Origin: Microbacteriaceae bacterium
GTDB taxonomy: Bacteria; Actinomycetota; Actinomycetes; Actinomycetales; Microbacteriaceae
Reading direction: 5' to 3'
DNA: 7,635 nt
NCBI GenBank assembly: GCA_026785785.1
Contig: JAJAZI010000079.1
Span: 1 to 7,635 of the forward strand
Shown: positions 104 through 7,635 of the stretch, piece after piece
How the letters are laid out: every line of letters starts with the position of its first letter
Position numbering within the stretch: the first letter of the stretch is position 1
Program-made: the position numbers and the translations under genes
Notes under the pieces: generated by a model
Databases searched by the model: none
Seen by the model: only the letters and a program-made list of their open reading frames with translations
What the model was told of the DNA's origin: nothing

Positions 104-154
104 CCCGGCCCCCCCCCCCCACCCCCCGGCCCCCCCCCGCCCGGGGGGGGCCCC
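104..154. repeat. C/G homopolymer low-complexity tract
   Basis: Runs of C12 (109-120), C6 (122-127), C9 (130-138) and G8 (143-150) are broken only by single A or G bases and one CCC. The composition is unlike anything else in the window, including other intergenic DNA. It lies between convergent genes. Read on the minus strand, the acs transcript side, it has runs of 9, 6 and 12 G and could form G-quadruplexes. It may be natural slippage-prone DNA or a sequencing/assembly error. Nothing visible decides between them. Confidence 0.8.
128..152 (-). terminator. possible transcript-end hairpin for acs (convergent intergenic)
   Basis: GGCCCCCCCC (128-137) and GGGGGGGGCC (143-152) form a perfect 10-bp stem with a 5-base loop, 15 bases beyond the acs stop. 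No T-run follows on either strand, so it is not a canonical intrinsic terminator. GC-only hairpins downstream of genes are common in Actinobacteria. Pairing within a homopolymer tract is also expected by chance, so confidence is low. Confidence 0.3.
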
Positions 155-167
155 GTTCTGCTTCGGG

Positions 168-2132
168 CTACTTCATCTTGTCGCTGATGATCTGCATCAC
201 CGCGGTGTCGGCGAGGGTAGTGGTGTCGCCGATCTCGCGACCCTCCGCGACATCCTGAAGCAGGCGGCGCATGATCTTGCCGGAGCGGGTCTTGGGCAGC
301 TCGTTGACGATGAAGATCTGCTTCGGACGCGCGATCGCGCCGATCTGCTCCGCGACGTGGCTGCGCAGCATCGCCACGGCCTCGTCGGTGGTCTGCTTCG
401 TGGCCTGCTTGGACTTCAGGATCACGAACGCGACGACGGCCTGCCCGGTCGCCTCGTCGGCGGCGCCGACGACAGCGGCCTCCGCCACAATCTTGTGCGA
501 CACGAGGGCCGACTCGATCTCGGCCGTCGAGAGGCGGTGCCCGGAAATGTTCATGACGTCGTCCACGCGGCCGAGCAGCCAGATGTCGCCGTCGGAATCG
601 ACGTGCGCCCCGTCGCCCGCGAAGTACTTCGACCCGCTGAGGGCCTTGAAGCGGTCCCAATAGGTCTCCTGGAATCGCTCCGGGTCGCCCCAGATGCCCC
701 GCAGCATCGAGGGCCACGGCTCCGAGACGACGAGCAGGCCACCGTTGGGCGGGTCGACCCGCGTGCCGTCCTCGCCGAGGATGTCGATCTTGATGCCGGG
801 GATCGGCACCTGCGCCGATCCGGGCTTGAGCGTCGTGACGCCGGGCAGCCCTGAGATCATGATCGCGCCGGTTTCGGTCTGCCACCAGGTGTCGACCACG
901 GGTGCCGTGCCGCCGCCGATGATGTCGCGGTACCAGACCCACGCCTCGGGGTTGATCGGTTCACCGACCGAGCCGAGAACGCGCAGCGAGGTGAGGTCGA
1001 AGGCGTTCGGCACCTCGCGCCCGATCTTCATGAACGACCGGATCGCGGTGGGCGCGGTGTAGAAGATGCTGACGCGGTACTTCTGGATGATCTCCCACCA
1101 GCGGCCCGGATGCGGGGTGTCGGGGGTGCCCTCGTAGAGAACCTGGGTGGCGCCGTTCGCGAGCGGACCGTAGACGACGTAGCTGTGGCCGGTGATCCAG
1201 CCGACGTCGGCGGTGCACCAGTAGACGTCGGATTCCGGATGCAGGTCGAAAACGTTCTTGTGGGTCGATGCCACCTGGGTCAGGTAGCCGCCGCTGGTGT
1301 GCAGGATCCCCTTGGGCTTCCCGGTGGTTCCCGAGGTGTAGAGGATGAAGAGCGGGTTCTCCGCCTCGAACGCCTCGGCCTCGTGTTCGGCGTCGGCCGA
1401 GGCAAGCTCCTCGTGCCACCAGCGGTCACGGCCGTCGATCCAGTCGACGTCGTTCTCGCCGCGGCGCACCACGAGCACGTTCCCAACGGTGCTCTTCTTC
1501 CCCGCGAGGGCACCGTCGACCGCGCCCTTGAGGGGAAACACCTTGCCCTTGCGCCACCCGCCGTCGGCGGTGATCACGAGCTTGGCGCTCGCGTCGTCGA
1601 TGCGCGAGCGCAGGCTCTCCGAGCTGAACCCGCCGAAAATCACGGTGTGCACCGCGCCGATGCGCGCGACGGCGAGCATCGCGATGACCGCCTCGGGGAT
1701 CATCGGGAGGTAGATCGCGACTCGATCGCCCTGGCCGATGCCGAGAGACAGCAGCACGTTGGCGGCACGCTTGACCTCGGCGGTCAGCTCCGCGTAGGTG
1801 ATCGAGCGGCTGTCGCCGGGCTCGCCCTCCCAGTGGATTGCGATGCGGTCGCCGTTCCCGGCCTCGACATGGCGGTCGAGGCAGTTGTAGGCGACGTTGA
1901 TCTTTCCGTCGGCGAACCACTTGGCGAATGGGGGATTCGACCAATCGAGCGTCTCGGTGAACCCCTTGTGCCAGTGCAACAGCGTTCTCGCTTGGTTGGC
2001 CCAGAAGGCAAGGCGGTCTGTGGCGGCCTCGTCGTATATTGCCTGGGATGCAATGGCCTGGCTCGTGAAGCTCTCGCTCGGCGGAAAGCGACGTTCCTCG
2101 TGCAGCAGGCTGTCGATGGAATTACTGGGCAT
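168..2132 (-). CDS. acs: acetyl-CoA synthetase (AMP-forming), Acs
   Basis: Cytosolic enzyme making acetyl-CoA from acetate, ATP and CoA through acetyl-AMP. The product is 654 aa, the usual family length of about 650. The adenylate-forming core motif YTSGTTGKPKG is at residues 265-275, ADVGWITGHSY at 308-318, and the Acs-type acetate/AMP motif TWWQTETG at 415-422, whose second Trp (417) matches the residue that restricts the enzyme to small acyl groups. The hinge and C-terminal lid motif GRVDDVMNISGHR is at 521-533, and PKTRSGKIMRR at 613-623 holds the catalytic Lys619, the site acetylated by Pat-type enzymes in other bacteria. The ATG at 2132 was chosen because AGAGGA lies 7 bases upstream and MPSNSIDSLL fits Acs N-termini. 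The frame is open 40 codons further up, but that stretch is Arg-rich and unlike the family. The gene is divergent from the 6C RNA and tad genes. Identification is secure. Confidence 0.97.
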   Translation of the reverse strand: MPSNSIDSLLHEERRFPPSESFTSQAIASQAIYDEAATDRLAFWANQARTLLHWHKGFTETLDWSNPPFAKWFADGKINVAYNCLDRHVEAGNGDRIAIHWEGEPGDSRSITYAELTAEVKRAANVLLSLGIGQGDRVAIYLPMIPEAVIAMLAVARIGAVHTVIFGGFSSESLRSRIDDASAKLVITADGGWRKGKVFPLKGAVDGALAGKKSTVGNVLVVRRGENDVDWIDGRDRWWHEELASADAEHEAEAFEAENPLFILYTSGTTGKPKGILHTSGGYLTQVASTHKNVFDLHPESDVYWCTADVGWITGHSYVVYGPLANGATQVLYEGTPDTPHPGRWWEIIQKYRVSIFYTAPTAIRSFMKIGREVPNAFDLTSLRVLGSVGEPINPEAWVWYRDIIGGGTAPVVDTWWQTETGAIMISGLPGVTTLKPGSAQVPIPGIKIDILGEDGTRVDPPNGGLLVVSEPWPSMLRGIWGDPERFQETYWDRFKALSGSKYFAGDGAHVDSDGDIWLLGRVDDVMNISGHRLSTAEIESALVSHKIVAEAAVVGAADEATGQAVVAFVILKSKQATKQTTDEAVAMLRSHVAEQIGAIARPKQIFIVNELPKTRSGKIMRRLLQDVAEGREIGDTTTLADTAVMQIISDKMK

Positions 2133-2287: not shown

Positions 2288-2315
2288 TTGCGCAGGGTGT
2301 TTCGTGGGCTACACT
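2288..2315 (+). promoter_or_regulatory. sigma-A-like promoter of the 6C RNA
   Basis: TTGCGC (2288-2293), a 16-base spacer and TACACT (2310-2315) give a housekeeping-type promoter. The predicted start is near 2322, just where a hairpin-forming palindrome begins and 17 bases before the first 6C stem. It could also supply the tad operon by read-through, since I see no other promoter before tadA. Confidence 0.6.
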
Positions 2316-2321
2316 AAATTC

Positions 2322-2337
2322 GTCGAATTCATTCGAC
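2322..2337. promoter_or_regulatory. 16-bp palindrome at the predicted 6C start point
   Basis: GTCGAAT-TC-ATTCGAC has perfect 7-bp arms. As DNA it sits at +1 of the promoter, an operator position. As RNA it would be a 5' hairpin (GTCGAA/TTCGAC with a TTCA loop). The half-sites TCGAA/TTCGA match those of the actinobacterial LexA box (TCGAAC-N4-GTTCGA) but are two bases too close together, so a LexA site is only a possibility. Confidence 0.5.
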
Positions 2338-2420
2338 TGGTGGCGCAAGTGATTCCCCCCAATCCAGCGTCACTGTGGCGGCACCGGTTCCCCCCAACAG
2401 GTGCCGCCCCTCCTATTTAA
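2322..2420 (+). ncRNA. 6C small RNA (two stem-loops with C6 loops)
   Basis: Two consecutive hairpins each expose exactly six cytosines, the defining feature of the actinobacterial 6C family. Hairpin 1: stem 2339-2346 with 2367-2374 (8 bp, two G-U), an internal loop, inner stem GATT/AATC (2351-2354 with 2361-2364) and loop CCCCCC at 2355-2360. Hairpin 2: GGCGGCACC (2377-2385) with GGTGCCGCC (2400-2408), a G/A mismatch, inner GTT/AAC and loop CCCCCC at 2390-2395. The tail CCTCCTATTTAA is only a weak U-tract, so the 3' end is estimated. The 5' end is set by the promoter at 2288-2315. The C-rich loops of 6C RNAs are thought to pair with G-rich mRNA sites. M. tuberculosis 6C (B11) lies beside the tad-like gene Rv3660c, and Corynebacterium glutamicum 6C is linked to the DNA-damage response. 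Here it lies directly upstream of tadA and divergent from acs. Confidence 0.87.
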
Positions 2421-2475
2421 CTCACAGATGACAGCGGCGCGGGCGCGCGGAGCCCAGACCCGGCAGGCTCGAAGG

Positions 2476-3567
2476 ATGCCCCGCGGCGAGAGCAGGTCCA
2501 ATCCGGACGAGCGCTTCGTCGCCCGGCATCCGGCCGTCTGGCCCCCCGCCGACGATGATCCGGCCGCCGTGCCCTCCGCGCCCACCGCGGTCGACCATCC
2601 GGCCGTTGCACAGGACCGGCTGGCTGCAGCGGAACTCGCGGACTTCGGCCGCCTCGGCCAACTCGTCGCCGATCCCGAGGTGACCGACGTGTTCGTCAAC
2701 GGCGCCGGCCGACTGTTCGTCGATCGGGGCAGCGGAGCGTTGCTGCAGCCCGATCCCCACCTCGACGAGCGCCAGGTGCGCGCGCTCGCCGTGCAGCTCA
2801 TCGCGGCCGGCGGTCGGCACATCGACGAGGCCACGCCCTGCGTCGACGTGCGCCTGCACGAGGGCATTCGTATCCACGCCGTTCTGCCCCCGGTGTCGCC
2901 GACCGGCACCCTGCTGTCGATCCGGCTGCCCCGCGTTACGCGCGTCACCGTCGACCAGCTCGAGCGCGAGGGCTTCTTTGCGATCGTGCCCATCGGCGAG
3001 GTGCGGTCACTGCTGTCCCGGCGGCGCAACATCCTCCTCACCGGGGCCGGCGGGAGCGGCAAGACGACGACCCTGTCGGCGATGCTTGCGCTCGCCGACC
3101 CCCGAGACAGAATCATCGCGATCGAGGATGTCGCCGAGCTGGCGGTCGACCACCCACACTTCGTGTCGCTCGAGGCCAGGCAGGCCAACCTCGAAGGGGC
3201 CGGCGCGATCGGCCTCGAGCGTCTCGTCCGAGAGGCCCTGCGGATGCGACCCGACCGGCTCGTGCTCGGCGAGTGCCGTGGAGCCGAGGTGCGCGAACTC
3301 CTCGCCGCCCTCAACACGGGGCACGACGGCGGCGCGGGAACACTGCACGCCAACTCCCTCACCGACGTGCCGGCGCGGATGGAGGCGCTCGGCGCGCTCG
3401 CCGGGCTCGGGCCGGAGGCGATCGCCCGGCAGACGGTGAGCGCAATCCACGCCGTCCTCCACCTTGAGCGGCGCGGGGACGGCTCCCGGCGGATCGCCCA
3501 GATGGGCCGGTTCGAGCTCGATGGGCGCGAACGGCTACGCGCCGTCCGGGTGCACGGCCATGCGTGA
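2476..3567 (+). CDS. tadA: TadA-family secretion/pilus ATPase (TadA/VirB11/CpaF-like)
   Basis: Cytoplasmic hexameric ATPase that powers assembly of the Flp/Tad pilus. Numbering from ATG 2476 (363 aa): a disordered Pro/Ala-rich N-terminus to about 45; a conserved N-terminal domain beginning near 50 with the TadA signature TDVFVNG at 70-76; Walker A GAGGSGKT at 190-197; an acidic box IIAIEDVAEL at 213-222; Walker B RLVLGECRGAE at 261-271; and a His box GTLHANS at 288-294. All catalytic motifs are intact. It resembles the 'helicase/secretion neighbourhood ATPase' group of Actinobacteria. The start is uncertain. GTG 2401 lies inside the 6C hairpin, ATG 2428 has no ribosome site, and ATG 2476 has AGG (2465-2467) 8 bases upstream. 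The codons between 2428 and 2475 also include ACA, CGA and AGG, which are less typical of the gene. It overlaps the next gene by 8 bases, so the two are probably coupled. Confidence 0.93.
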   Translation: MPRGESRSNPDERFVARHPAVWPPADDDPAAVPSAPTAVDHPAVAQDRLAAAELADFGRLGQLVADPEVTDVFVNGAGRLFVDRGSGALLQPDPHLDERQVRALAVQLIAAGGRHIDEATPCVDVRLHEGIRIHAVLPPVSPTGTLLSIRLPRVTRVTVDQLEREGFFAIVPIGEVRSLLSRRRNILLTGAGGSGKTTTLSAMLALADPRDRIIAIEDVAELAVDHPHFVSLEARQANLEGAGAIGLERLVREALRMRPDRLVLGECRGAEVRELLAALNTGHDGGAGTLHANSLTDVPARMEALGALAGLGPEAIARQTVSAIHAVLHLERRGDGSRRIAQMGRFELDGRERLRAVRVHGHA

Positions 3568-4486
3568 GTCCGCCGACCTCGATCCAGTCGCCTCCGTCGC
3601 CCAGCGCCTGGCAGTGCTGCTCGAGGGCGGGGTCGCCCCGGCGCGCAGTTGGCGCTATCTCGCCGATCAGCAGCGTGGGCTCACCGGTCGCCTGCTCGCG
3701 TCGGTCGCCGACGCAGCGGGTCGGGGGCGGCCGGTGTGCGAGGCGATCATCGACGCGATCGGCGAGGGCAGGCTCGGAGAGGCGTCGGAGTGGAGGGGGC
3801 TCGCCGCCGCGTGGCAGGTGGCGACGGATGCCGGTGCGCCGCTCGCGCCGACGCTGCACTCCTTCTCGAACTCGCTGCGCTCCCTCGCCCAAGTGCAGCG
3901 CGAGTTGCAGAGCGCGCTCGCCGGGCCCCGGGCAACAGCGCGCCTGGTGCTGGGGTTGCCGCTTGTCGGGCTGCTGTTCGGGGTGGCTCTCGGATTCGAT
4001 ACCATCACCGTCCTCTTCACGACGGTGCCGGGGCTCGGCTGCCTGATTGCCGGACTCGCTCTCCTGGCGGTCGCGCGATTCTGGAGTTTCCGGCTGGTCG
4101 CCTCTGCCGCGCCGCGGCTGGTGACGCCGGGCCTCGGCCTCGATCTCGTGGCGATCGCTGTCTCCGGCGGGATCTCCATTCCGCGCGCTCTCGCGCTCGT
4201 CGATGAGGCGCGAACGCGATGTGGGCTCGCCGACGACGGGTCGCGCGCCGTTCTCGCCGAGGTTCTCGAGCTCTCCCGCCGCGCGGGGGTGCCGGCCGCC
4301 GGGCTGCTGCGGAGTGAGGCCGACGAGGCGAGGCGGATGGCGCGGAGCGCCGGTGACCGCCGGGCGGCGACACTCGCCGTCACTCTCATGGTGCCGCTCG
4401 GCGTGTGCGTTCTGCCCGCGTTCCTGCTGCTCGGGGTGGCGCCGCTGCTTATCTCAGTCGTCTCCTCGACGATCGGCGTGTTGTGA
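3560..4486 (+). CDS. type II secretion F-family inner-membrane protein (TadB/TadC fusion-like)
   Basis: Membrane platform protein of the Tad pilus, expected to contact TadA. It is 308 aa with two F-type halves. The first half has an amphipathic part from about 10 (VAQRLAVLLEGGVAPARSW) through QRELQSALAG (113-122), then two hydrophobic segments at about 129-147 and 151-171. The second half has a second F-like part (DLVAIAVSGGISIPRALAL at 195-213, ending near RRMARSAGDRRAAT) followed by a long hydrophobic stretch at about 269-303 that fits two membrane segments. TadB and TadC are usually separate genes (Rv3658c and Rv3657c in M. tuberculosis), so one gene seems to hold both compact modules here. 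ATG 3560 overlaps the tadA stop. The frame extends upstream into tadA without a better start. Family assignment is firm; the fusion reading is inference. Confidence 0.88.
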   Translation: MRESADLDPVASVAQRLAVLLEGGVAPARSWRYLADQQRGLTGRLLASVADAAGRGRPVCEAIIDAIGEGRLGEASEWRGLAAAWQVATDAGAPLAPTLHSFSNSLRSLAQVQRELQSALAGPRATARLVLGLPLVGLLFGVALGFDTITVLFTTVPGLGCLIAGLALLAVARFWSFRLVASAAPRLVTPGLGLDLVAIAVSGGISIPRALALVDEARTRCGLADDGSRAVLAEVLELSRRAGVPAAGLLRSEADEARRMARSAGDRRAATLAVTLMVPLGVCVLPAFLLLGVAPLLISVVSSTIGVL

Positions 4487-4609: not shown

Positions 4610-4813
4610 ATGGAGAACCGATTGGAGAACCGATTCACGGCCCTGATGGCGCGCGCCCGGCGTGAGGACGGTGGAGCCGCGACGGCCGAGTATGCGATCG
4701 CGACGATGGCCGCCGTGGGATTCGCGGGGTTGCTGGTGGTGATCCTGCGCAGCGCCGAGGTGCGCGGCATCCTCACCGACCTTGTTCAGCGTGCGCTCAC
4801 CTTCGCCGGATGA
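4610..4813 (+). CDS. Flp-like type IVb prepilin (DUF4244 family)
   Basis: Likely major subunit of the Tad pilus, 67 aa. A short charged leader (residues 1-22, ending RARREDGG) precedes the prepilin-peptidase site G22|AATAEY, with Glu at +5 and Tyr at +6 of the mature protein, the classical Flp signature. The hydrophobic assembly helix runs from about 26 to 47 (YAIATMAAVGFAGLLVVIL) and a short amphipathic tail ends RALTFAG. The mature pilin would be 45 aa. The context (ATPase and F-protein upstream, two TadE-type proteins downstream) supports the call. The leader begins with an exact 12-base tandem duplication, which encodes MENR-LENR. The stop overlaps the next ATG (ATGA, 4810-4813). No prepilin peptidase is in the window, so the processing enzyme must be encoded elsewhere. 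Confidence 0.92.
   Translation: MENRLENRFTALMARARREDGGAATAEYAIATMAAVGFAGLLVVILRSAEVRGILTDLVQRALTFAG
4611..4634 (+). repeat. 12-bp tandem duplication in the pilin leader
   Basis: TGGAGAACCGAT occurs twice, exactly and in tandem (4611-4622 and 4623-4634). It adds four residues to the prepilin leader, giving ENRL then ENRF. It is in frame and leaves the cleavage site unaffected. Confidence 0.9.
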
Positions 4814-5160
4814 GCCTGGGCGCGGTCCGGGGAGAGCGCGGCAGCGTGACTACCGAGTTCGCGGTCCTGATGCCGGCGGTGCTGCTGCTGCTCGGCCTCG
4901 GCCTCTCGGCGGCACAGGTATCGAGCCGCCAGCTGCAGCTACAGGACGCCGCGGCCGACGCGGCGCGGGTCATCGCGAGGGGAGAGGGGGTGCCGGCCGC
5001 CGAGCGGCACCTTGCCACCCTCGTACCGGGGGCGGTGTTGCGCGGGCAGACCACTGGCGACATGTTGTGCGTGCTGCTGAGCGCCCCCGGTGCGCCCCGC
5101 GGTCTGTTCGCGGCGGTCCGGCTCGAGGCGAGGAGCTGTGCACTCGATGGCGGGTTCTGA
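4810..5160 (+). CDS. TadE-family minor pilin / pseudopilin
   Basis: Predicted minor pilin of the Tad pilus, 116 aa, anchored by one N-terminal helix with the rest outside the membrane. The N-terminus MSLGAVRGERG|SVTTEF gives a prepilin-peptidase-like site after Gly11 with Glu at +5 (E16), as known for TadE pseudopilins. The hydrophobic helix FAVLMPAVLLLLGLGLSAAQ spans 17-36 and is followed by SSRQLQLQDAAADAARVIARG, the usual TadE continuation. Cys87 and Cys110 near the end could form an extracytoplasmic disulfide. The ATG overlaps the pilin stop by 4 bases, so the genes are probably translationally coupled. It corresponds in position to the small genes downstream of Rv3656c in M. tuberculosis. 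Confidence 0.88.
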   Translation: MSLGAVRGERGSVTTEFAVLMPAVLLLLGLGLSAAQVSSRQLQLQDAAADAARVIARGEGVPAAERHLATLVPGAVLRGQTTGDMLCVLLSAPGAPRGLFAAVRLEARSCALDGGF

Positions 5161-5509
5161 GCTCCTGCCCGTGGCACGGAGCGAGCGCGGCGCCGGGTCG
5201 ATCATGGCGGTGGCCGTCGTCGCGGGGGCCGTCGTGACCCTCGCGGCACTCGCTCCGCTGTCGCTCGTTCTCCAGGCGAAGGTGGCCACCGCCGGTGCCG
5301 CCGACGCTGCCGCGCTCGCCGCGGCCGACGCCGCAGTGGGCATCGTTCCCGGCCCACCGTGCGAACGTGCGGGAGGAGTGGCGGCCGCCAACAAGACCGC
5401 GCTGCGCGCCTGCCAGGTCGATGGAGTGATCGTCACGGTGCGGGTCGCCGTGACGGCAGCGGGCTTCGACGTCGGAGCCACCGCGACGGCGGGTCCCGCG
5501 CCACGGTAG
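5147..5509 (+). CDS. TadE-like protein of the helicase/secretion neighbourhood (Rv3654c-like)
   Basis: 120-aa protein with a short basic N-terminus (SERGAGSIM, 12-20), a hydrophobic helix at about 20-43 and an Ala-rich stretch at 45-63 (KVATAGAADAAALAAADAA). The extracytoplasmic tail has two Cys in the family pattern (PCERAGG at 71-77, LRACQVDG at 86-93) and ends in Val-rich strands. This matches the actinobacterial TadE-like group typically found beside a DECH helicase, though no helicase is present here. Unlike the gene before it, there is no Glu at +5 after the Gly, so it may not be cleaved by prepilin peptidase. The start at ATG 5147 has AGGAG 11-12 bases upstream and overlaps tadE by 14 bases. 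A GTG at 5171 is a possible shorter start. It is the last gene of the tad cluster. Its precise role is unknown. Confidence 0.85.
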   Translation: MAGSELLPVARSERGAGSIMAVAVVAGAVVTLAALAPLSLVLQAKVATAGAADAAALAAADAAVGIVPGPPCERAGGVAAANKTALRACQVDGVIVTVRVAVTAAGFDVGATATAGPAPR

Positions 5510-5666: not shown

Positions 5667-7635
5667 GTGCCAGTCACGAAGAAGCTGGTCATCGTCGAGT
5701 CGCCCGCAAAGGCCAAGACGATCGCCCAGTATCTCGGAGATGGTTACGAGGTCCAGGCCTCGGTTGGTCACATCCGCGACCTCATCGAGCCGAAAAACCT
5801 CCCGCCCGAGCTCAAGAAGGGCTCGCTCGGCAAGTTCTCCGTCGATGTCGAGAACGGCTTCGAGCCGTACTACGTGGTCTCCGACCAGAAGAAGAAGACC
5901 GTCGCCGACCTGCGACGAGCGCTGAAGAATGCCGACGAGCTCTACCTCGCAACTGATGAGGACCGCGAGGGCGAGGCCATCGCGTGGCACCTGCTGCAGG
6001 AGCTCAAGCCCAAGGTTCCGGTCAAGCGCATGGTCTTCCACGAGATCACGAAGGAGGCGATCGAGCGCGCCCGCGAGAACACCCGCGACATCGACACCGC
6101 ACTCGTCGACGCGCAGGAGACCCGGCGCATCCTCGACCGCCTCTACGGGTTTGAGATCTCGCCCGTGCTCTGGCGCAAGGTCGGCCCCGGGCTGTCCGCT
6201 GGCCGCGTGCAGTCCGCCGCGACCCGCCTGGTCGTCGACCGCGAGCGCGAACGCCTCGCGTTCACCGCCGCGAGCTACTGGGACCTCGCCGCGCGCCTGG
6301 CCACCGAGCAGGGCCAGTCCGGCTTCGAATCGCGCCTCGCCCGCGTCAATGGCGCGCGCATCGCCCAGGGTAAGGACTTCGACGACCTCGGCAAGCTCAA
6401 GTCCGACGTGCGGGTGCTCGACTCCGTCGCCGCCGAGTCACTCGCCGCAGCCCTGCGCCGGCCCGATGTGGTCGTCTCGGTCGCCTCGGTCGACTCCAAG
6501 CCCTACACGCGTCGCCCGGCGGCCCCGTTCACGACGTCCACCCTGCAGCAGGAGGCCGCGCGCAAGCTGCGCTTCACCGCACGGCAGACGATGAGCGTGG
6601 CGCAGGGACTGTACGAAAACGGTCACATCACCTACATGCGAACCGACTCGCCGAACCTCTCCCAGCAGGCGCTCGACGCTGCCCGCTCGCAGGCCGCCTC
6701 GCTCTACGGCCCCGAGACCGTGCCGGACACGCCGCGCATGTACGTGGGCAAGAACAAGAGCGCGCAGGAGGCCCACGAGGCCATCCGCCCCGCCGGAGAA
6801 ACTTTCCGCACCCCGGCGGAGATGCAGGGAACGCTCCGCGGCAACGAATGGAAGCTCTACGACCTGATCTGGAAGCGCACCGTCGCGTCGCAGATGGCCG
6901 ACGCGAAGGGTGCCACGGCATCCGTCGTCATCGCTGCGACCGTCACCGAGACGCTCGAGGCGTTCCCCGGAACCGGGCCGACCGTCGCGGAATTCACCGC
7001 CAGTGGCACTGTCATCACCTTCCGCGGGTTCATGCACGCCTACGAGGAGGGCAAGGACGAGGAGCGCAACGAGGCACCGGAGGCCGCCGAGGCGAAGCTG
7101 CCCCCGCTCACCGCCGGCCAGGAGCTCACGATCGCCGAGGTCGAGGCGAAGGGCCACGAGACGAGCGCGCCGCCCCGCTACACCGAGGCGAGCCTGGTCA
7201 AGAAGCTCGAGGAGCTCGGCATCGGCCGACCGTCGACTTACGCGTCGATCATCTCCACGATCATCGACCGGGGGTACGTGACCCCGCGCGGTCAGTCGCT
7301 CGTGCCGAACTGGGTGGCCTTCTCGGTGGTGCGGCTGCTCGAGGAGTTCTTCGGCGACCTTGTCGAATACGACTTCACCGCGGAGATGGAGAACGACCTC
7401 GACCGCATTGCGGACGGCGAGGCCGACCGTGTCGCCTGGCTGACGAGCTTCTACTTCGGCAGCGACAAGCACCGCGGCCTGCGCAACGTCGTCGACAACT
7501 TGGGCGACATCGACGCGAAGACCATCAACTCGATGGTGCTCACCGACGACATCACCCTGCGCATCGGCAAGTACGGCCCCTACCTTGAGGTCGCGTCGGA
7601 CGAGCCGGATGCCGCGGACGGCACCCCCGCGACGC
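5667..7635 (+). CDS. topA: DNA topoisomerase I (type IA), 3' end beyond window
   Basis: Relaxes negatively supercoiled DNA by breaking one strand through a 5'-phosphotyrosine link. The start is GTG with GAGGAG (5657-5662) 4 bases upstream; the first residues, (V/M)PVTKKLVIVESPAKAKT, match the family. The TOPRIM domain holds VESPAKAKT at 10-18 with Glu11, and the metal-binding DEDREGE at 97-103. The conserved KVGPGLSAGRVQSAATRL is at 171-188 and the active site ITYMRTDS at 321-328, with catalytic Tyr323 and Arg325. GIGRPSTYASII at 518-529 and the start of the C-terminal repeats (RIGKYGPYLEV, 632-642) are also present. An acidic linker sits at 460-476. The frame is intact over 656 codons; the rest, expected to be a few hundred residues including a basic tail, lies outside. 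It sits beside the tad locus, as in other Actinobacteria (Rv3646c lies near Rv3654c-Rv3660c). Confidence 0.97.
   Translation, partial: MPVTKKLVIVESPAKAKTIAQYLGDGYEVQASVGHIRDLIEPKNLPPELKKGSLGKFSVDVENGFEPYYVVSDQKKKTVADLRRALKNADELYLATDEDREGEAIAWHLLQELKPKVPVKRMVFHEITKEAIERARENTRDIDTALVDAQETRRILDRLYGFEISPVLWRKVGPGLSAGRVQSAATRLVVDRERERLAFTAASYWDLAARLATEQGQSGFESRLARVNGARIAQGKDFDDLGKLKSDVRVLDSVAAESLAAALRRPDVVVSVASVDSKPYTRRPAAPFTTSTLQQEAARKLRFTARQTMSVAQGLYENGHITYMRTDSPNLSQQALDAARSQAASLYGPETVPDTPRMYVGKNKSAQEAHEAIRPAGETFRTPAEMQGTLRGNEWKLYDLIWKRTVASQMADAKGATASVVIAATVTETLEAFPGTGPTVAEFTASGTVITFRGFMHAYEEGKDEERNEAPEAAEAKLPPLTAGQELTIAEVEAKGHETSAPPRYTEASLVKKLEELGIGRPSTYASIISTIIDRGYVTPRGQSLVPNWVAFSVVRLLEEFFGDLVEYDFTAEMENDLDRIADGEADRVAWLTSFYFGSDKHRGLRNVVDNLGDIDAKTINSMVLTDDITLRIGKYGPYLEVASDEPDAADGTPAT

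What the first reader, a model, noticed from the sequence alone, without database searches (positions are those of the whole stretch)
2322..2420. A 6C small RNA sits directly upstream of the tad pilus locus
Two adjacent hairpins each present a loop of six cytosines inside the shared decamer TTCCCCCCAA (2353-2362 and 2388-2397). A plausible promoter ends just upstream. This is the signature of the actinobacterial 6C RNA, easily missed by protein-based annotation. M. tuberculosis 6C (B11) also lies beside the tad-like cluster, so the linkage may be conserved and meaningful.
Basis: partly seen in the sequence, partly recalled or inferred. Interest (0 to 1): 0.75.

Follow-up and report, generated by a model that had tools for sequence, protein, structure and literature searches.

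The report
Divergent 6C small RNA beside tad
The bases at 2322-2420 match the structure of 6C, a known small RNA of actinobacteria, and sit beside the same pilus genes as in distant relatives; the RNA is predicted to be made from its own promoter and likely turns genes down by pairing its C-rich loops with G-rich message starts, so it is an ordinary find in a branch of the family that the standard database cut-off mostly misses.

Summary
The window holds two adjacent hairpins, each with six loop cytosines inside TTCCCCCCAA. Rfam's 6C model (RF01066) reports nothing at its curated cut-off, but scores 2339-2412 at 36.8 bits against 47 (E 0.0012), the best place in this genome. The shortfall belongs to the whole family: RF01066 passes its cut-off in 5 of 150 Microbacteriaceae genomes, whereas a model built here finds the RNA in 124 of 150. 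Stems covary. A -10-like element lies just upstream in 72 of 75 copies. The copy sits upstream of tadA on the same strand in 113 of those 124 genomes. Class-wide, 60 of 70 genomes show the same order, mostly with room for one more gene; three of three tested were ssd. Mycobacterium tuberculosis B11/6C lies in the same place. Likely mechanism, from work on B11: base-pairing of C-loops with G-rich ribosome-binding sites. No target was established here, and the tad and acs starts are not candidates. New but modest: the divergent subfamily, and a second twin-loop RNA in one genus.

The parts
2288..2315 (+). predicted promoter: TTGCGC (2288-2293), 16 nt, TACACT (2310-2315); inferred start of transcription near 2322
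   Evidence: TAnnnT within 18 nt upstream of the RNA in 72 of 75 copies against 19 of 1500 control windows, which lie further upstream and are largely GC-rich acs; generic scan found none
2322..2420 (+). 6C RNA gene, about 99 nt as predicted
   Evidence: R1 match 2322-2420, 93.3 bits (the window is one of R1's seed rows); RF01066 2339-2412, 36.8 bits, below the cut-off of 47
2322..2337 (+). 5' hairpin GUCGAA-UUCA-UUCGAC
   Evidence: fold; in relatives only weakly above chance: 54 of 75 against 49% of shuffles
2339..2374 (+). first C-loop hairpin; loop 2355-2360 within UUCCCCCCAA 2353-2362
   Evidence: fold; all 7 outer pairs change on both sides in relatives; own arms pair better than swapped arms
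2377..2408 (+). second C-loop hairpin; loop 2390-2395 within UUCCCCCCAA 2388-2397; predicted terminator stem
   Evidence: fold; 96.9% of cells paired, 4 of 9 outer pairs with changes on both sides
2409..2420 (+). weak U-rich tail CCUCCUAUUUAA, predicted 3' end
   Evidence: sequence; relatives have a mean of 6 U in the last 12 nt; not recognised by the terminator scan
168..2129 (-). acs (acetyl-CoA synthetase), divergent neighbour
   Evidence: Pfam; divergent Acs upstream in 71 of 71 named loci with enough sequence
2428..3567 (+). tadA (Rv3659c-like; that Rv number is recalled); start codon uncertain (2428 or 2476)
   Evidence: TIGR03819, 398.2 bits, cut-off 373.15
3464..4486 (+). tadB/C-like (T2SSF); true start probably near 3561
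   Evidence: Pfam
4610..4813 (+). DUF4244, small pilin-like protein
   Evidence: Pfam
4810..5160 (+). TadE, Rv3655c family
   Evidence: NF041390, 42.6 bits, cut-off 40
5147..5509 (+). TadE-like, Rv3654c family
   Evidence: TIGR03816, 51.5 bits, cut-off 50.95
5667..7634 (+). topA (cut by the contig end)
   Evidence: Pfam; TopA downstream in 54 of 62 named loci with enough sequence

Best explanation
Bases 2322-2420 are a divergent orthologue of the actinobacterial 6C RNA (B11 in mycobacteria), predicted to be transcribed from its own housekeeping promoter as a free RNA of about 99 nt that likely represses distant messages by pairing its two C6 loops with G-runs at or near their ribosome-binding sites. 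Shown here: the two-loop structure with covariation, the conserved -10-like element, the conserved place between acs and tadA, and the continuity with copies that pass Rfam's cut-off. Inferred: transcription, the ends of the RNA, termination at the second hairpin, pairing with messages, and the outcome (blocked ribosome binding and faster decay), all carried over from B11 in Mycobacterium abscessus and M. marinum. The targets in this organism are unknown. Identity is about 0.95 likely, the mechanism about 0.75.
For: Structure: z -5.1. Covariation: 15 of 22 pairs with changes on both sides, 89.8% of cells paired, 0 of 500 shuffles as good on any of five measures; slid versions lower on all five, though only 10-13 against 15 on pairs with double change. 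Since those rows had been picked partly by a hairpin scan, I repeated the test on the 37 copies chosen by sequence alone: own arms of the first stem pair at -16.8 kcal/mol on average, swapped arms at -13.0, with 241 of 1190 swaps as good; second stem -22.5 against -20.3, 145 of 462. Family model: RF01066 36.8 bits, E 0.0012, best place in the genome. Breadth: R1 in 124 of 150 genomes, 72 of 85 genera; some of those genomes also supplied R1's 36 seeds. Promoter: 72 of 75. Linkage: 113 of 124; 71 of 71 divergent acs; class-wide 60 of 70. Loops kept while stems change: 37 of 75 copies have TTCCCCCCAA in both loops, and a second RNA in 4 of 6 genomes of one genus keeps the two decamers 35-36 nt apart on different stems. 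Mechanism, from papers: upregulated genes in an M. abscessus B11 deletion are enriched for complementary sites at the RBS (PMC10470900: outline with abstract and sections 4 and 9 read); compensatory mutations at pks5 in M. marinum (PMC12395582: outline with abstract and sections 6 and 10 read).
Against: Score below Rfam's gathering cut-off. No expression data. The generic promoter and terminator scans found nothing here, and the U tail is weak. The 5' hairpin is hardly above chance across relatives. Target searches failed: WWGGGGGGWW before a start codon was barely above its reversed control (103 against 84 over the 25 family genomes, summed, hits inside 6C genes included); GGGGGGAA before ATG gave 31 against 6 in six genomes (again with a hit inside a 6C gene and one site counted twice), but that control does not allow for ordinary Shine-Dalgarno bias, and no target protein was shared between genomes. 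The loops are not invariant: 50 of 75 copies are C6/C6, others run from C4 to C8, and 30 of 75 have the exact decamer in neither loop. 26 of 150 family genomes gave no match.
Confidence: 0.85

Rival explanations
1. A cis-acting leader or attenuator of tadA: the hairpins would lie in the 5' untranslated region of the tad message and control read-through or translation of tadA.
For: In the window the open frame of tadA begins right after the RNA (7 nt from the R1 end to ATG 2428). Rfam labels RF01066 Cis-reg. The two are on one strand within 2 kb in 113 of 124 genomes.
Against: Across the class the gap to tadA mostly leaves room for another gene (median 1379 nt), ssd in three of three tested. 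In five genomes the RNA and the best tadA match lie 3.8 to 87 kb apart on one contig; in three of these checked (G069, G110, G078) the RNA stays beside acs, and in a fourth (G088) a weaker TadA match does lie near it. 21 of 141 genomes with this TadA have no R1 match. RT-PCR found no joint transcript of B11 and Rv3660c in M. tuberculosis (PMC2764107, passages read). No complementarity to the tad starts.
Confidence: 0.1
2. The C-loops bind a protein rather than messages, so that the RNA acts as a decoy or sponge.
For: Loops are often kept while stems drift. The repeated C-run at about 35 nt (34 of 75 copies exactly 35, range 33-40) would suit a two-site protein.
Against: In M. marinum, matched base changes in RNA and target restore regulation in part (PMC12395582). 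[quoted passage not shown]
Confidence: 0.06
3. A plain pair of terminators, or a relic with no regulatory role.
For: GC-rich hairpins with a U-rich tail stand between divergent genes.
Against: Terminators need neither a conserved -10-like element 6-8 nt before the first hairpin nor twin C6 loops kept in many genera (48 of 85), and would not lie upstream of both neighbours.
Confidence: 0.03

Closest known systems
6C RNA, Rfam RF01066
   Same: two adjacent stems with C-rich loops, full-length model match 1-75, actinobacterial host, upstream of ssd/tad genes
   Different: 36.8 bits against a cut-off of 47; first stem closed by GAUU/AAUC, second by GUU/AAC; in the window both loops carry UUCCCCCCAA; here tadA is the next gene, with no ssd between
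B11/6C of mycobacteria (Rv3660c-Rv3661 gap)
   Same: place beside a tad cluster of the same families, a sigma-A type -10 element, 93 nt, three stem-loops with C-runs in loops 2 and 3 (PMC12395582)
   Different: B11 of M. [quoted passage not shown] in the window both loops are the same decamer, which suggests, untested, that both matter; divergent neighbour is acs here
6C RNA of Corynebacterium glutamicum (cgb_03605)
   Same: about 100 nt on Northern blot with a 5' extension beyond the Rfam model (PMC4046766, passages read)
   Different: two stretches of eight cytosines; linked to the SOS response by a paper not held (Pahlke 2016, seen as cited)

Membership tests
6C RNA (RF01066) | two adjacent stem-loops, each with about six or more loop cytosines | tested here: met
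   window C6 and C6
6C RNA (RF01066) | match to the covariance model | tested here: met
   full-length match 1-75, E 0.0012, best in genome
6C RNA (RF01066) | score at or above Rfam's gathering cut-off (a curation threshold rather than a biological trait) | tested here: not met
   36.8 against 47. Filed as a member all the same, because five relatives with the RNA in the same place pass the cut-off (positions) and scores grade down from there without a gap
6C RNA (RF01066) | stems supported by compensatory change | tested here: met
6C RNA (RF01066) | location by the ssd/tad locus as in other actinobacteria | tested here: met
6C RNA (RF01066) | free transcript of about 75-100 nt | not testable with these tools
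   no RNA data; promoter element conserved
6C RNA (RF01066) | trans repression through C-loop pairing with G-rich RBS | tested here: inconclusive
   searches gave no conserved target
tad locus of the Rv3654c-Rv3659c type | TadA-family ATPase and the two TadE-like families above NCBIfam cut-offs | tested here: met
   TIGR03819, NF041390, TIGR03816

The most novel reading that the evidence does not exclude
In much of the Microbacteriaceae, 6C is a two-pronged RNA: both loops carry one and the same recognition decamer, UUCCCCCCAA, held about 35 nt apart, and the pair, not the stems, is what selection keeps. A second RNA in one genus (probably Curtobacterium) carries the same two decamers at the same distance on different stems, most often behind a clpC-like gene, so the twin decamer would be a portable regulatory cassette that grips one partner with both loops.
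Probability: 0.15. Interest if true: 0.5.

Novelty: new member of a known kind. Interest (0 to 1): 0.33.

Why it matters
It shows that a conserved small RNA is present in most of a large bacterial family, yet falls under the database cut-off in nearly all of it (5 of 150 genomes pass; 124 of 150 by a clade model). It also shows that the 6C-(ssd)-tad order holds widely across the class (60 of 70 genomes with a match), which makes the question why a trans-acting RNA stays beside a pilus and septum locus open to test in harmless hosts.

Tried and rejected
Cis-regulation of tadA or acs by loop pairing: the starts of acs, tadA (two candidates), tadB, DUF4244, the two TadE genes and topA have G-runs of 3 at most, and duplex energies no better than shuffles (68 to 200 of 200 shuffles as good).

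Targets in the own genome: TTGGGGGGAAAGATG occurs in G000 and in its closest relative G005, but it lies antisense inside an open frame on the other strand that resembles glgE by eye, so I dropped it. In G003 a near complement with seven G (TTGGGGGGGAA) precedes an EAL-domain-like frame (domain recognised by eye); no other genome of the genus had it.

Strict co-evolution of loop lengths: a few genomes change both loops together (G001, G014, G008, G024), but over 75 copies the correlation is only 0.33; of 25 copies that depart from C6/C6, 15 do so in one loop and 10 in both. Not claimed.

5' hairpin as a family feature: 54 of 75 against 49% of shuffles; kept only as a fold of the window.

My first C-loop scanner misplaced several loci; counts rest on the R1 search instead. 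Its hits supplied the seed rows, hence the second covariation test on sequence-chosen copies. Six of 80 TadA loci have no R1 match (L096, L107, L118, L150, L151, L158).

Papers: searches '6C motif' + 'pilus assembly' (none), '6C RNA' + 'pilus' (one), + 'Microbacteri' (one), + 'partition' (two, not opened), + 'synten' (three; PMC13354803 not opened). In the papers the passages found mention 6C only in passing. Synteny of 6C with Ms1 RNA across Actinobacteria is published (PMC6582537, passages read). From memory only: the original description of the 6C motif (Weinberg 2007) already noted nearby partitioning and pilus genes; that paper was not seen, so I do not claim the linkage as new.

Full report
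What is there. The window is a whole contig (G000:C79) of a Microbacteriaceae genome, to judge by its named relatives. It reads acs (minus strand), then 2322-2420, then tadA, a T2SSF gene, DUF4244, two TadE-like genes and topA. The stretch 2322-2420 contains TTCCCCCCAA twice, 35 nt apart, and folds into three hairpins with z = -5.1. The last two hairpins expose C6.

Is it 6C? At Rfam's gathering threshold nothing is reported. With the E-value threshold RF01066 matches full length at 2339-2412, 36.8 bits, E 0.0012. The four other families listed there are far below their own cut-offs. In whole-genome searches it is the best place of this genome, which is 82% complete. The low score is a property of the clade: RF01066 exceeds its cut-off in 5 of 150 family genomes, with 98 of 150 at E up to 1, while class-wide it exceeds it in 52 of 118. 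The five family genomes above the cut-off (G030, G100, G106, G129, G172) carry the RNA just upstream of tadA, as here (positions). I therefore treat the cut-off as too strict for this branch, not as evidence against membership.

A model of the branch. I aligned 36 copies (the window and 35 of the 80 named loci, which were fetched by their TadA, and picked from my hairpin scan; alignment), gave the structure of the window without its 5' hairpin and a few weak pairs, and built R1. On that alignment, which MAFFT made without structure, 15 of 22 pairs change on both sides, 89.8% of cells pair, and none of 500 shuffles reaches any of the five measures. All seven outer pairs of the first stem show double changes. 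Because the scan asked for a stem around a C-run, these rows lean towards pairing. On the 37 copies chosen only by the exact tandem decamer, own arms still pair better than arms swapped between loci: first stem -16.8 against -13.0 kcal/mol on average (241 of 1190 swaps as good), second stem -22.5 against -20.3 (145 of 462). R1 matches 75 of 81 sources at 34 bits or more and 124 of 150 family genomes, 72 of 85 genera. Some of these genomes are the same as seed genomes, so the figure is not fully independent.

Promoter and ends. In 72 of 75 copies TAnnnT lies within 18 nt upstream of the RNA, against 19 of 1500 control windows; 63 of the matches start 13 or 14 nt upstream. The control windows lie 60-600 nt further upstream, largely in GC-rich acs, so the contrast is somewhat flattered. 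In the window the element is TACACT at 2310-2315 with TTGCGC at 2288-2293. The consensus scan, which demands more of the two boxes, finds none. The second hairpin is followed by a U-rich tail in relatives (mean 6 U in 12 nt), weak in the window.

Place. Of 124 family genomes with the RNA, 113 have it upstream of tadA on the same strand within 2 kb (median 232 nt to the first aligned residue); five have both on one contig but further apart, two on different contigs, four have no listed TadA. In three of the five (G069, G110, G078) the RNA stays beside acs while tadA is displaced; in a fourth, G088, a weaker TadA match lies near the RNA after all; the fifth, G147, was not fetched. In named loci, divergent acs precedes it in 71 of 71 with enough sequence, and topA follows in 54 of 62. 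Class-wide, 60 of 70 genomes with an RF01066 match show RNA then tadA on one strand within 3 kb; outside this family (57 genomes) the median gap is 1379 nt. The other ten: five with the best listed TadA on another contig, one with no TadA at the threshold, one whose TadA place fell beyond the list, one on the opposite strand nearby, one 6.8 kb away, one far away. The gap gene was tested in three loci and is ssd (TIGR03815) in all three. Two of the window's tad proteins fall in families named after Rv3655c and Rv3654c, and its TadA in TIGR03819; that TadA corresponds to Rv3659c and ssd to Rv3660c is recalled. B11 lies between Rv3660c and Rv3661. So the window has the same ancestral locus, with no ssd gene between.

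How it likely works. B11 in M. abscessus and M. marinum represses messages whose ribosome-binding regions hold G-runs, by base-pairing of its C-loops. The window RNA has the same kind of loops, so the same mechanism is the best inference. I could not name a target. The full complement of the decamer near start codons is rare, and the wider WWGGGGGGWW pattern is not clearly in excess over a reversed control (103 against 84 in 25 family genomes). A shorter pattern is in excess (31 against 6) but without shared genes, and its control does not remove ordinary Shine-Dalgarno bias. Local genes are not candidates.

Novelty. The element is a new member of a known family. Possibly new are the size of the gap in annotation, and a second RNA in the genus g32: in four of its six genomes searched (G036, G132, G350, G392; not in G300, G429) a second pair of TTCCCCCCAA hairpins, 35 or 36 nt apart and followed by a separate GC-rich hairpin, lies away from tad, in three of them behind a frame that resembles clpC (recognised by eye). 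Its stems differ from those of 6C. R1 sees only one of the four well (30.8 bits in G392). The genus is probably Curtobacterium, since the 45-nt core of G392's own 6C is identical to that of L119. Extra 6C copies are known in mycobacteria (PMC9569102, passages read).

Noticed in passing
L308 2649-2693 (+), L309 3182-3226 (-), L307 2056-2100 (+), L306 2036-2081 (+): A second small-RNA candidate with two TTCCCCCCAA hairpins 35-36 nt apart plus a separate terminator-like hairpin, in 4 of 6 genomes of genus g32; behind a clpC-like frame in three of them.
   Followed up: partly
window 104-154: Extreme run of C and then G just beyond the 3' end of acs; could be a very strong hairpin or an assembly error.
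   Followed up: no
family genomes: 21 of 141 genomes with this TadA gave no R1 match; 9 of the 21 are genomes of about 0.9-1.8 Mb, as if 6C were sometimes lost on genome reduction (the fast filters may also have missed weak copies).
   Followed up: partly
L254 2529-6415 (reverse complement): Frames that look, by eye, like a sugar ABC transporter sit between 6C and tadA; 6C stays beside acs.
   Followed up: partly
L074, L075: 6C copies whose loops have shrunk to C4 in both hairpins (G024, identical in this stretch to Klugiella L142, and G008).
   Followed up: partly
L288: A near complement of the loop, TTGGGGGGGAA (seven G), lies 7 nt before an ATG of an EAL-domain-like frame in G003; a possible but unconserved target.
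   Followed up: partly
L259 2516-3088 (-): In G088 a second, weaker TadA match (47% over 193 residues) lies near the 6C copy, while the best match is a short frame 87 kb away.
   Followed up: no
window 2401-2475: The tadA frame is open back into the RNA, and the start codon (2428 or 2476) is unclear; neither has a clear Shine-Dalgarno by eye.
   Followed up: no
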